DNA of 35,729 bases from Planctomycetota bacterium (GTDB lineage Bacteria > Planctomycetota > Planctomycetia > Pirellulales > Pirellulaceae): positions 1 to 35,729 of the forward strand of contig JAQBZB010000060.1 in the NCBI GenBank assembly GCA_027622275.1. Direction: 5' to 3'. Positions 21,312-35,630 of this stretch are shown one piece after another (within the stretch, counting starts at the first letter, position 1; each line of letters opens with the position of its first letter). The notes under the pieces were generated by a model. The model was given only the letters and a program-made list of their open reading frames with translations, was not told where the DNA came from and did no database searches. Position numbers and translations under genes: made by a program.

Positions 21312-21430
21312 CGAAGTCCGAAATACCCAAGGACGAGGAGGAAATGACGAAGACCGAAATACCCAATGACGAAAGCAAGATTCGGAATTCGTCATTCCTT
21401 AGTCATTGGGTATTTCGTCATTCGTCATTT
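21306..21430. repeat. AATGACGAA-type repeat: two direct copies and one inverted copy
   Basis: Direct copies at 21306-21330 and 21342-21366 differ at one of 25 positions. A third, inverted copy lies at 21406-21430; counted with flanks, 21342-21370 and 21402-21430 form a 29-bp inverted repeat with three mismatches. The TGA stop codons of the epimerase gene (21309-21311) and of the M20 gene (21425-21427) both lie in the copies. It resembles a bidirectional 3'-end hairpin. Confidence 0.85.
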
Positions 21431-25782: not shown

Positions 25783-25824
25783 CAATGACCAATGACCAAT
25801 GACGAATGACCAATGACGAATGAA
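25783..25824 (+). repeat. Heptad array between nuoD and nuoE
   Basis: Six 7-base units run CAATGAC, CAATGAC, CAATGAC, GAATGAC, CAATGAC, GAATGAA. Each unit contains ATGA, and the nuoE start codon (25813-25815) is in the fifth unit. The same AATGAC/AATGACGAA words are seen in the repeat at 21306-21430. Confidence 0.9.
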
Positions 25825-27661: not shown

Positions 27662-27682
27662 ATTGCCGATTTGCGATTTTCA

Positions 27683-27741
27683 ATTTGCGATTGGGCATCC
27701 TGTAACAATCAATCGCAAATCACAAATCACAAATCACAAAT
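27683..27741 (+). repeat. Inverted repeat plus CACAAAT heptads between nuoF and nuoG
   Basis: ATTTGCGATTG (27683-27693) pairs perfectly with CAATCGCAAAT (27710-27720). It is followed by three CACAAAT units (27721-27741), with CGCAAAT (27714-27720) as a degenerate fourth. The array ends just before the nuoG start. Confidence 0.85.
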
Positions 27742-27748
27742 TACCATC

Positions 27749-33122: not shown

Positions 33123-35630
33123 ATGGATGACTGGCTGAGCAGATTTCTGATTCTGATCCCGGCGTTCCCGCTGGCCGCCGCGATCCTTGTTGCGATCGCC
33201 GGGCCCAAGCTGTTGAAGCGTTGGTGTCACGTGCCGGTGATCGTCGCGATTGCTGCTTCGTTCGTTTGCAGCTTGGGTGTGTTGAGCCAAGTCAGCCGGC
33301 TGAGCAATGATGCCGTCGCGGAACATTCGACGCTCGCCAGCGCCGGATTCGAACACGTCGTCACACTGTGGACGTGGGCGGATGTGGTGGAAGCATACAC
33401 GCCGCCTGACGATCTAGAGGCGGTTGCCGACGGCGGGTCGCGCGACTTCCGCATCGACGTCACGCTCCGCGCCGACGCATTGACGGCGATCATGCTGTCG
33501 ATGGTCACGTTCATCTCGACGCTGGTCGCGATCTTCGCCGCCGGCTACATGCACGGTGATCGCGGCTACTGGCGGTTCTTCGCCTACATCGGATTGTTCG
33601 TGTTCTCGATGACGATGCTGGTCTCGGTCAGCAACTTCATCATGCTGTTCGTGTTTTGGGAAGCGGTCGGCGTGTGCAGCTACCTGCTGATCGGCTTTTG
33701 GTACGAAAAACCGGAAGCAGCAGCCGCGGGCAAGAAAGCTTTCCTCGTCAATCGCGTTGGTGACTTGGGATTCGCCCTGGCGCTGTTCCTGATCTGGACC
33801 AACTACGGCACGCTGAACTTTCACGATACACGCGCGGACGGCGAGACCGATCCGGTCTTGATTTCGCAAGCGATGGAAGCGCAGCTCGCGGGAGACGCGC
33901 CGGGCGACAACGAATCGCTGGTTGTGCGCGGCGTATTGGGCCGCTGGCGAATCGCCGCGAACGACTACGTGACCGGCAAGGTGGCTTTGGCGATCTGTTT
34001 GCTGTTGTTGTTGGGAGCTTGTGGCAAGAGCGCTCAGTTCCCGCTGCATGTCTGGTTGCCCGACGCGATGGAGGGCCCGACGCCTGTCAGCGCGCTGATC
34101 CACGCGGCGACGATGGTCACGGCCGGCGTCTATATGGTCACGCGATGCACGCCGCTGTTCATGGCTTCGCCCGAGGCGCAATTGACGGTGGCTTGTGTCG
34201 GCACGTTTACGGCGCTGCTGGCTGGTTTGATCGCCATGACGCAATTCGACCTGAAGCGAGTCCTGGCCTACTCGACGGTCAGCCAACTGGGCTACATGTT
34301 CCTGGCGCTCGGAACCGGAACAGTCGTCGGCATTTCCGCCGGAATGTTTCACTTGTTCACGCACGCTTTTTTCAAGGCATTGCTGTTCCTCGGCGCGGGC
34401 AGTGTCATGCACGCGATGGGCGGCGTGATCGATATGCGTCGCTTCGGCGGCTTGCGAAGGCGGATGCCGACGACGCATGCCACGTTCATGATCGGTTGCC
34501 TCGCGCTCGCCGGCTTTCCCTTGCTGTCAGGTTTTTTTAGCAAAGACTCGATCGTCGCCGCCGTGCATGATCGCGTGCATGACATCGAACATCACTTGGA
34601 AGGGCATGGCCTGGAGTCCAATGTCGATGACAAAGACAATAGGACGAATAGGTCTCATACGACCTATGAGTCCTATTCGGAGCCGGAACATTCCCAAAGC
34701 ACTCTCGGGCAACTTGCAAACTTGCCCGCTGCCCAGTTGCATCGGTTTGCGACGGTATATCAATGGTTGTACTATTCGGCGATGTTCACCGCTTTCCTCA
34801 CGGCCTTCTACACCTTCCGTGCGTTCTTTATGACGTTTTACGGTAAGGAAGTCATTCCGCACGAAGCTGGACACCACGCTCATGAGTCGCCGCCGATGAT
34901 GGCTTGGCCGTTGATCGTCTTGGCCGTGTTTGCGGCGCTGGTCGGTGGTGCGCTCGATCAAACGATTATTCACGGCCCGAATCTGTTCGGCACATTCTTG
35001 CTCCATACGCCTTCGTTGGCCGACGGAGCGGCGGCTGCCACATTCAAACCATTCGAGTTTCACGGAAATGTTGCTGGTACAAGTGGCGCGATCGCGATCT
35101 TGGCAATTCTGCTGGCGACCTACTTGTATCTTGGCCATCAGCGCGAGATCGAGTGGATTCGCCGGCTAATGGACTTTGAGCAGTTTGCGAAGTGGTTTGA
35201 CGTCGAATCGGTTTCTCGGTGGAAGGAAGTTGCTTGGGTCAAGCAGTTGCATAGCGCAGCCAAGTCGGTTGGCCTTGGTTGGCTGACAGGTGGACTCGGC
35301 AATGCGATTCTCTTGCTGGTCTTGATTGCGGCCACACCATTTATGCTAGGTCACTTCATCTCGCCATATAAGCTTTCCCTAGGGAAATTTTTTGTTGATG
35401 AGATTTACCAGCTTTTGATCGTACTCCCGCTCCGCGGGTTTGCGGTTGTCTGTTACGCGATCGATCGTTGGATCGTGGATGGATTCGTGAATCTCGTGGG
35501 CCGCATCCCGCTGCTCGTTGGCGGGTTGATGCGTTCGCTCCAGATGGGATTGGTTCAGTTCTATGCGTTGGCGATGGTGTTAGGAGTGTTGGTGTTGTTG
35601 GTCGCCCGGGTCATGCTGGCGGCTGGTTAA
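33123..35630 (+). CDS. nuoL: NADH-quinone oxidoreductase subunit L, enlarged
   Basis: Encodes 835 residues, compared with about 610 in Escherichia. The first ATG giving MDDWLSRFLILIPAFPLAAA is chosen; the frame is open 26 codons upstream inside nuoK. The antiporter-like core is intact: MLFVFWEAVGVCSYLLIGFWYEK has the key Glu, KSAQFPLHVWLPDAMEGPTPVSALIHAATMVTAGVY contains the conserved Lys and His region, and AYSTVSQLGYMFLALG and LTAFYTFRAFFMTFYG follow. Extra material lies at ~60-115, ~240-290, at ~480-545 (including a translated palindrome at 506-519) and near the C-terminus, where the lateral helix is expected. Confidence 0.94.
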   Translation: MDDWLSRFLILIPAFPLAAAILVAIAGPKLLKRWCHVPVIVAIAASFVCSLGVLSQVSRLSNDAVAEHSTLASAGFEHVVTLWTWADVVEAYTPPDDLEAVADGGSRDFRIDVTLRADALTAIMLSMVTFISTLVAIFAAGYMHGDRGYWRFFAYIGLFVFSMTMLVSVSNFIMLFVFWEAVGVCSYLLIGFWYEKPEAAAAGKKAFLVNRVGDLGFALALFLIWTNYGTLNFHDTRADGETDPVLISQAMEAQLAGDAPGDNESLVVRGVLGRWRIAANDYVTGKVALAICLLLLLGACGKSAQFPLHVWLPDAMEGPTPVSALIHAATMVTAGVYMVTRCTPLFMASPEAQLTVACVGTFTALLAGLIAMTQFDLKRVLAYSTVSQLGYMFLALGTGTVVGISAGMFHLFTHAFFKALLFLGAGSVMHAMGGVIDMRRFGGLRRRMPTTHATFMIGCLALAGFPLLSGFFSKDSIVAAVHDRVHDIEHHLEGHGLESNVDDKDNRTNRSHTTYESYSEPEHSQSTLGQLANLPAAQLHRFATVYQWLYYSAMFTAFLTAFYTFRAFFMTFYGKEVIPHEAGHHAHESPPMMAWPLIVLAVFAALVGGALDQTIIHGPNLFGTFLLHTPSLADGAAAATFKPFEFHGNVAGTSGAIAILAILLATYLYLGHQREIEWIRRLMDFEQFAKWFDVESVSRWKEVAWVKQLHSAAKSVGLGWLTGGLGNAILLLVLIAATPFMLGHFISPYKLSLGKFFVDEIYQLLIVLPLRGFAVVCYAIDRWIVDGFVNLVGRIPLLVGGLMRSLQMGLVQFYALAMVLGVLVLLVARVMLAAG
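34638..34677 (+). repeat. 40-bp palindrome translated within nuoL
   Basis: AATAGGAC (34638-34645) pairs with GTCCTATT (34670-34677); after two unpaired positions per side, ATAGGTC-type bases 34648-34654 pair with 34661-34667, leaving a six-base loop. In the nuoL frame it reads NRTNRSHTTYESYS (residues 506-519), low in hydrophobic residues and unlike the flanking helix-rich sequence. Confidence 0.85.

What the first reader, a model, noticed from the sequence alone, without database searches (positions are those of the whole stretch)
34610..34700. Intergenic-style palindrome captured in frame by nuoL
Seen: a 40-base imperfect palindrome (15 paired positions) is translated as NRTNRSHTTYESYS in a hydrophilic insertion of NuoL between the conserved SKDSI and the YYSAMFTAFLTAFY helix. 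Around it the frame is open and the rest of NuoL looks intact. Inference: a mobile palindrome landed in a tolerant loop of an essential subunit; its length change (a multiple of three) kept the frame.
Basis: partly seen in the sequence, partly recalled or inferred. Interest (0 to 1): 0.55.

Follow-up and report, generated by a model that had tools for sequence, protein, structure and literature searches.

The report
Hairpin of 9-base repeats inside nuoL
A small self-complementary DNA hairpin built from 9-base repeats sits in frame inside a respiratory-chain gene of a planctomycete, and it looks like a gene-less copy of a repeat family that surrounds genes for a little-studied four-helix protein, which suggests an overlooked kind of mobile DNA.

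Summary
The palindrome is real. It is a degenerate array of 9-bp units (consensus ATNNGWCNN) whose unit is cyclically self-complementary: two forward and two inverted units forming a hairpin at 34639-34679, read in frame as NRT/NRS/HTT/YES/YS. It is absent from nuoL of the two congeners searched (84-86% identity). The loop is hypervariable (36-123 aa), so a clean insertion cannot be shown at nuoL.

The family can be traced. Same-flavour arrays (ATAGGWC) lie at three more sites of this genome, none in the congeners. A second flavour lies in frame in hsdM and hsdR of this genome; one hsdR site is a net 81-nt in-frame insertion against a relative. In the best-sampled relative 8 of 11 array groups lie between genes.

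Arrays track TIGR04258 (four-helix-bundle-suffix) genes: 9 of 11 array genomes against 4 of 87 others among 98 relatives; among 392 phylum genomes all 5 with at least 5 hits, against 25 of 387. A flavour seen at that gene in two genomes was then found in three of 98, those two included.

Best reading: a gene-less miniature hairpin element, captured in frame. Movement and any role of the protein are inferred. Plain four-helix-bundle genes show period-7 or period-8 arrays.

The parts
34639..34680 (+). degenerate array of 9-bp units ATAGGACGA / ATAGGTCTC / ATACGACCT / ATGAGTCCT / ATTCG(GAGC); two forward units followed by two inverted units
   Evidence: template score 23 against 6-8 in the nuoL loci of 11 relatives, and the only one at 13 or more in 336 kb of this genome; the template was read off this array
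34638..34679 (+). hairpin: predicted stems of 8 and 7 bp separated by a 2x2 internal loop, 6-nt end loop
   Evidence: RNA fold -21.8 kcal/mol; DNA fold z -4.3
34638..34682 (+). in-frame translation NRT-NRS-HTT-YES-YSE, a tripeptide repeat within NuoL
34554..34769 (+). hypervariable hydrophilic loop of NuoL between SKDSI and YYSAMFTAFLTAFY
   Evidence: GFFSKD to TAFYTFR spans 36-123 aa in the 79 homologous loci with both motifs; 30 more lacked a motif; the two PDB alignments shown break here
33123..35630 (+). nuoL, NADH-quinone oxidoreductase subunit L, 835 aa, intact frame, host of the element

Best explanation
The nuoL palindrome is a gene-less miniature hairpin element of a planctomycete family built from short inverted arrays of 9-bp units. 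The arrays of this family also bound, and sometimes lie inside, genes of four-helix-bundle proteins with the TIGR04258 suffix domain. The most likely mechanism: the hairpin (forward units, short loop, inverted units) is copied as a unit to new sites, probably with help in trans from a TIGR04258 protein. Unit number then changes in 9-bp steps, so the frame is kept, and the copy in nuoL survives because it fell in a tolerant loop. Shown: the array and hairpin, the same flavour at three other sites of this genome, in-frame hairpins in hsdM and hsdR, one net 81-nt insertion, and the association with TIGR04258. Inferred: movement as a unit, any action of the protein, and which partner served this flavour.
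For: Same-flavour pattern ATAGGWCNNATAGGWC: 7 hits at 4 sites of this genome (nuoL 2, C16 3, C132 1, C481 1), 0 in the congeners G001 and G002. Flavour ATGGGAANN in this genome: around the TIGR04258 gene on C372, in hsdM and twice in hsdR, all in frame (gene names). Against G026 (81-86% nt identity over the long blocks), hsdR site 1 is a net 81-nt in-frame gain holding a 73-nt hairpin that ends in GGCGATG...CATCGCC; the hsdM array is a 16-residue gap in 3ufb and 5ybb. 98 relatives: arrays in 11 (reversed control in 2), TIGR04258 in 13, both in 9; Fisher p 2e-8, within family f1 2e-6. 392 phylum genomes: arrays in 16 (control in 7), TIGR04258 in 30, both in 9, p 2e-7; all 5 genomes with at least 5 hits have it, p 2e-6. 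Prediction noted before the search: flavour AARGGACNN, seen at the TIGR04258 genes of G017 and G030, was found in 3 of 98: G030 (121 hits), G017 (8), G069 (2). In G030, 9 of 11 array groups away from that gene are forward-then-inverted pairs, 0 inverted-then-forward. Arrays scoring at least 14: 24 of 28 TIGR04258 loci, 0 of 9 plain PF05635 loci, 0 of 29 NuoL loci of relatives.
Against: The nuoL units are degenerate: without a template the period-9 score is only 10, below the cut-off, where periods 7 and 15 score as often as 9 or more often in this genome. Neither TIGR04258 gene found in this genome carries the nuoL flavour (C372: ATGGGAANN; C225: ATCAGTCNN), so the partner of this copy is missing, lost or unassembled. 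Two of the four same-flavour sites (C132, C481) rest on one pattern hit each, and single hits also occur in the reversed control (11 of 98 genomes). No clean empty site at nuoL; in hsdM and at hsdR site 2 the array replaces other loop sequence. No target duplication was established. Two array genomes lack TIGR04258 (G036 and G041, 72% and 82% complete) and four TIGR04258 genomes lack the first pattern. In one search G069 has no TIGR04258, seven of the eight G017 hits lie at the gene itself, and the control has single hits in 3 of 98. In the phylum set 7 of 16 array genomes lack it, each with at most 2 hits. Arrays inside or beside the TIGR04258 gene inflate the association; counting only genomes with arrays elsewhere gives 7 of 9 against 6 of 89 (sorted by hand, with G069 and C651 of G001 left out). 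The templates were chosen after seeing the relatives' loci; the template-free score passes 14 in 13 of 19 and only 1 of 9, and the phylum hits rest mostly on a stretch of the gene's own frame.
Confidence: 0.64

Rival explanations
1. Local origin: the array grew in place by 9-bp slippage and hairpin template switching in a loop under weak constraint, with no mobile unit.
For: Units 1-2 are 14 of 16 identical to the reverse complement of units 3-4, as copying by template switch would give. The loop is hypervariable. No near-identical copy exists elsewhere in the genome. The units are degenerate. The C16 array is a pure tandem, ATTCGTCCT repeated.
Against: It does not explain the shared flavour at four sites with none in two congeners, the net 81-nt hsdR insertion, the association with TIGR04258, or the forward-then-inverted order in 9 of 11 groups of G030.
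Confidence: 0.23
2. Protein-level selection: the tripeptide repeat is useful in the NuoL loop (or another host protein) and the DNA palindrome is a by-product.
For: The copies in hsdM, hsdR and nuoL are in frame. TIGR04258 proteins from other classes carry a similar peptide, such as RSYETYKTHVE or RSYMTYKTYVE, at the same kind of array.
Against: With the protein fixed, synonymous resampling reaches the palindrome score in 1 of 1000 and the 9-mer score in 0 of 1000. Other loci read other frames of the same unit, such as VLFVLFVLFV on C16. 8 of 11 G030 array groups are between genes. The residues are not kept in the other NuoL loops printed.
Confidence: 0.05
3. The arrays are regulatory or terminator hairpins, placed by selection at gene ends, and the link with TIGR04258 is shared ancestry or genome size.
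For: Several arrays in G030, G024, G036 and G053 sit within tens of nt of gene ends, some between convergent genes.
Against: In-gene copies in nuoL, hsdM and hsdR are translated, so they cannot be terminators there. The flavour at the gene pointed to the genomes. The association holds inside one family.
Confidence: 0.07

Closest known systems
Rickettsia palindromic elements (RPEs)
   Same: Palindromic elements inserted in frame in unrelated protein-coding genes (passages of PMC10969869 seen).
   Different: RPEs are about 150 bp and of ten families in Rickettsia; here inverted arrays of 9-bp units with genome-specific flavour, about 42 nt in nuoL and 63-93 nt in the hairpins folded, in Planctomycetota, and tied to a four-helix-bundle gene.
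REPIN / RAYT systems
   Same: Inverted pairs forming hairpins, dispersed between genes, same sequence type beside a partner gene, partner-specific types (passages of PMC3116915 seen).
   Different: The partner here is a TIGR04258 protein with a PF05635-like part (below Pfam's cut-off), some with a topoisomerase-type zinc ribbon, and no transposase match among the five examined in Pfam and NCBIfam; arms are 9-mer arrays, and copies also lie inside genes.
Intervening sequences (IVS) of 23S rRNA genes
   Same: A four-helix-bundle ORF in an inserted element; PMC10053308 (passages seen) notes family members encoded in large 23S rRNA intervening sequences. That IVS ends are complementary and that ORF-less IVS exist is recalled, not from a call.
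   Different: Not in rRNA here; the ends are period-9 (or 7, 8) arrays; gene-less forms lie in operons and reading frames.
Heptamer direct repeats (TAACTGA repeats of Beggiatoaceae and cyanobacteria)
   Same: Short-period intergenic arrays (passages of PMC4679880 seen).
   Different: Period 7, mostly direct; 'four helix' and 'S23' do not occur in that paper's main text, and its abstract suggests translational regulation.

Membership tests
Rickettsia palindromic elements | palindromic element inserted in frame in coding genes | tested here: met
   in-frame palindromes in nuoL, hsdM, hsdR; insertion proper shown only at hsdR site 1
Rickettsia palindromic elements | sequence homology to an RPE family | not tested
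   no RPE sequence was compared
REPIN / RAYT | inverted repeat pairs forming hairpins, dispersed | tested here: met
   9 of 11 array groups of G030 away from the partner gene; nuoL, hsdM, hsdR hairpins
REPIN / RAYT | partner gene is a Y1 (HUH) REP-associated tyrosine transposase | tested here: not met
   five TIGR04258 proteins match only TIGR04258, TIGR02436/PF05635 and zinc-ribbon or topoisomerase models; RAYT genes were not searched genome-wide
MITE | terminal inverted repeats | tested here: met
   hsdR element GGCGATG...CATCGCC, 73 nt
MITE | target site duplication and a related transposase | tested here: inconclusive
   no duplication visible at hsdR site 1 against G026; transposases were not searched genome-wide
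23S rRNA IVS-like element | four-helix-bundle ORF bounded by inverted repeats | tested here: met
   period-9 arrays at 24 of 28 TIGR04258 loci, at some of them only inside the gene; plain PF05635 genes of this genome with inverted heptamer arrays on both sides in 7 of 9. This concerns gene-bearing relatives, not the nuoL copy, which has no ORF of its own
23S rRNA IVS-like element | located in a 23S rRNA gene | tested here: not met
   the nuoL element is in a protein gene
TIGR04258 (partner gene, this genome) | score above the curated cut-off of 40 bits | tested here: met
   two loci, C372 and C225, over the cut-off

The most novel reading that the evidence does not exclude
Four-helix-bundle proteins of the PF05635 superfamily are the trans-acting partners of a widespread, undescribed class of mobile hairpins without a recognisable transposase. 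The hairpins are inverted arrays of short units whose period matches the protein subtype (9 bp for TIGR04258; 7 bp for plain PF05635 in this genome; 8 bp at five and 7 bp at one of six cyanobacterial plasmid loci). The protein would bind a repeated helix with internal loops, in RNA or single-stranded DNA, and promote its copying. The nuoL palindrome is one such copy, made harmless by its 9-bp unit.
Probability: 0.35. Interest if true: 0.92.

Novelty: new variant of a known kind. Interest (0 to 1): 0.72.

Why it matters
If right, a curious palindrome in nuoL is a window on a mobile-DNA system that pairs short inverted arrays with a protein family of unclear function. It would give a role to TIGR04258 and perhaps other PF05635 proteins (which resemble the Avd protein of diversity-generating retroelements, PMC10053308, passages seen), explain some short-period repeats of planctomycetes and cyanobacteria, and add a case beside Rickettsia of palindromes that enter reading frames without breaking them. 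The flavour rule makes it directly testable.

Tried and rejected
Identical dispersed copies: rejected; the array has no other match within 3 mismatches in the genome, and a blastn search with 111 bases found three weak pieces besides itself (one of them, on C16, proved to be an array).

Array density in this genome: in 336 kb only the nuoL array reaches template score 13; template-free period-9 segments are not commoner than those of period 7 or 15 (same sample plus the two loci L027 and L028); the first exact pattern occurs at 3 places in the genome. The genome is not array-rich.

Plain PF05635 genes as partners of the nuoL flavour: none of the 9 plain loci carries nonamer arrays at score 14; weak matches below that are listed.

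Chance single hits: five of the nine genomes with ATAGGWC pairs have one hit each, and the reversed control has single hits in 11 genomes. Controls elsewhere: 2 of 98 genomes (G016 with 4, G075 with 1 on each strand), 3 of 98 (one hit each), 7 of 392 (G204 3, G249 2, five with 1).

First idea that the palindrome is a terminator: dropped, it lies inside the translated frame.

Literature: no report of nonamer arrays with four-helix-bundle genes in searches. Those listings, and passages of PMC3733652, PMC6749651, PMC10969869, PMC10053308, PMC3116915, PMC4679880 and PMC4692102, are all I saw; the library is open-access only, so this is weak evidence of novelty.

Structure prediction was not run: its rule limits it to the window and certain fetched loci, and the partner genes came from the genome search.

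Full report
1. The observation. Positions 34638-34679 hold inverted repeats in two registers, inside an intact 835-aa nuoL. The array reads ATAGGACGA / ATAGGTCTC / ATACGACCT / ATGAGTCCT / ATTCG. The consensus ATNNGWCNN is its own reverse complement up to rotation, so an array of it tends to pair with itself in registers half a period apart; the two repeats are centred 4.5 bp apart, as expected. The first two units are 14 of 16 identical to the reverse complement of the next two. The DNA fold has z -4.3. With the loop's protein fixed, synonymous resampling reached the palindrome score in 1 of 1000 and the 9-mer score in 0 of 1000. The 9-mer template was read off this array; without it, period 9 is still the best of periods 5-15 there, but with a modest score of 10 against at most 7. 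So neither chance nor the peptide explains the palindrome, and the units are degenerate.

2. The host site. From GFFSKD to TAFYTFR the NuoL loop region spans 36-123 aa in the 79 homologous loci in which both motifs were found; 30 more lacked a motif (sequences of the best-scoring ones). The congeners G001 and G002 (84% and 86% identity) have 90 aa against 97 here, with unrelated loop sequence by eye; their loci score 7 with the 9-mer template, against 23 here, and nine further relatives score 6-8. The two alignments shown to solved homologues break at the loop. The palindrome therefore sits in a tolerant loop, but so much else differs that a clean insertion cannot be read off.

3. Other copies in this genome. 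The exact pattern (ATNNGWCNN)3AT occurs at three places, with 0 in the reversed control: nuoL, C16 (in frame, a hydrophobic N-terminal stretch LFVLFVLFV) and C225 (inside a TIGR04258 gene). The nuoL flavour, ATAGGWCNNATAGGWC, occurs at four sites (C16, C132, C250 = nuoL, C481), and not in G001 or G002. C132 has forward and inverted arms; C481 is between genes by a crude gene call; each of these two rests on a single pattern hit. In 336 kb read in full, the nuoL array is the only one reaching template score 13.

4. A second flavour shows capture in frame. ATGGGAANN arrays surround a TIGR04258 gene on C372, which lies between an N6-methylase C-terminal part and a type I specificity gene, and lie in frame in hsdM (C288) and at two sites of hsdR (names). 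The genome G026 has a collinear operon at 81-86% nucleotide identity over the long blocks. At hsdR site 1 this genome has 118 nt where G026 has 37, a net in-frame gain of 81 nt, containing a 73-nt hairpin with ends GGCGATG and CATCGCC. In hsdM the array replaces part of a loop, net +21 nt, and is a 16-residue gap in 3ufb and 5ybb. At hsdR site 2 G026 has an unrelated cysteine-rich loop. This is what an in-frame capture looks like, once as a near-clean gain and twice as replacement.

5. Relatives. In 98 relatives the first pattern is in 11 genomes, the control in 2. Of 15 arrays at score 14 or more in 20 fetched stretches of relatives, 8 are between genes and 7 in an open frame, three of these in TIGR04258 genes (crude gene call). 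In G030, a single-contig genome, ten windows away from its TIGR04258 gene, taken at the first listed places (first 2.5 of 8.2 Mb), hold 11 array groups, leaving out one match at the lowest score: 9 forward-then-inverted pairs, 2 single forward arrays, none inverted-then-forward; 8 are between genes and 3 overlap an open frame. Six of these folded alone give long hairpins; in nuoL and hsdR the stems are broken by 2-nt internal loops.

6. The partner. The C225 array sits in a protein with a four-helix-bundle part (TIGR02436 over its cut-off; PF05635 below Pfam's) and the TIGR04258 suffix. TIGR04258 is in 13 of the same 98 genomes, 9 of them array genomes; 9 of 11 against 4 of 87, Fisher p 2e-8; inside family f1 2e-6. 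Counting by hand only genomes with arrays away from that gene: 7 of 9 against 6 of 89, p 4e-6 (G030 and G017 come in; G069 and a simple tandem on C651 of G001 were left out). In an even sample of 392 phylum genomes with a second pattern, 16 have arrays (control in 7), 30 have TIGR04258, 9 both, p 2e-7; all five with at least 5 hits (G241 156, G350 19, G256 15, G417 8, G476 5) have it, p 2e-6. The two samples overlap in a few genomes, and phylogeny was allowed for only by the within-family test.

7. A prediction. The TIGR04258 genes of G017 and G030 carry AARGGACNN arrays. Before searching I noted that this flavour should be confined to them. It is in 3 of 98: G030 (121 hits), G017 (8 hits, seven at the gene itself and one on another contig) and G069 (2 overlapping hits at one place, no TIGR04258); the control has one hit in each of 3 genomes. 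The G030 result carries the weight.

8. Specificity. Arrays scoring at least 14 occur at 24 of 28 TIGR04258 loci (15 of 19 of relatives, 9 of 9 of the phylum set), 0 of 9 plain PF05635 loci of this genome and 0 of 29 NuoL loci; the templates were chosen after seeing the relatives' loci. The template-free period-9 score passes 14 in 13 of 19 relatives' loci but only 1 of 9 phylum loci. In at least seven of the nine phylum loci the array lies in the TIGR04258-bearing frame itself, reading for example NRSYETYKTHVE or NRSYMTYKTYVE, close to the nuoL peptide; whether that stretch is the origin of the dispersed arrays or simply conserved protein is open.

9. A wider pattern. The nine plain PF05635 genes of this genome have period-7 arrays next to them, on at least one side in nine of nine and, in inverted order, on both sides in seven of nine, as I read the listing at score 12. 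Six cyanobacterial plasmid loci, taken from 20 hits, have period-8 (five) or period-7 (one) arrays with the nearest 1-12 nt from the gene. Over the 37-40 kb around four of these genes there are 2, 5, 3 and 2 period-8 arrays, of which 2, 3, 1 and 2 lie within 120 nt of the gene; two of the stretches also hold period-7 arrays elsewhere. This was not tested at scale.

10. Mechanism. The most economical reading is a gene-less hairpin copied as a unit, with TIGR04258 as the likely helper. Shown: architecture, in-frame copies, flavour sharing, association, one near-clean insertion. Inferred: movement, protein action, and the identity of the partner, since neither TIGR04258 gene found here carries the nuoL flavour. 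Frame safety follows from units of nine bases and from the unit's few stops: in the nuoL array four of six frames are open.

11. Comparison. In-frame palindromes are known as RPEs (passages of PMC10969869); inverted pairs with a partner gene as REPIN/RAYT (passages of PMC3116915); PF05635 proteins encoded in 23S rRNA intervening sequences (passages of PMC10053308). The nuoL element works like the first, its family is organised like the second, and the partner protein resembles the superfamily of the third. By the tests made it is not shown to be a member of any of them.

Noticed in passing
window 21380-21429, 25783-25823, 27662-27744: Period-7 arrays (ATTCGTC; CAATGAC; AAATCAC and inverted), two of them at the nuoD/nuoE and nuoF/nuoG junctions of the same operon (gene names).
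   Followed up: partly
L268-L276 (plain PF05635 loci of the window's genome): Plain four-helix-bundle genes have inverted heptamer arrays on both sides in 7 of 9 loci, for example AGAGGTC x3 before and GACCTCT x4 after the gene in L271.
   Followed up: partly
L296-L305 (cyanobacterial plasmids): Four-helix-bundle genes with octamer (five of six loci) or heptamer arrays, nearest 1-12 nt from the gene, inverted on the two sides in L302, L303 and L305; gene-less copies of the same type (GCAGAGGA or its complement) elsewhere on the stretches L303 and L304.
   Followed up: partly
L249, L250, L028, L010, L013: TIGR04258 genes sit in defence-type surroundings: in a type I restriction operon, between a helicase and an N6-methylase-like gene, and next to Csb2 of type I-G CRISPR in L010; in L013 the neighbour looks alike by eye only.
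   Followed up: partly
L267 12228-12402 against L249 5772-5871: The same site of hsdR holds a cysteine-rich loop in G026 and a 9-mer hairpin in the window's genome: perhaps a hotspot for inserts.
   Followed up: no
L027 332-410 (C16): A pure 9-bp tandem (ATTCGTCCT) codes the hydrophobic N-terminal stretch YVLFVLFVLFVL of a thioredoxin/HEAT-repeat protein, so the array may form part of a signal or membrane segment.
   Followed up: no
window around 13874, 15399, 17407, 18694, 22844, 35661: Other strong imperfect hairpins, unrelated to the 9-mer unit and apparently between genes.
   Followed up: no
G016 and G204: The reversed control patterns have clusters (4 and 3 forward hits), so other short-period array flavours may exist.
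   Followed up: no
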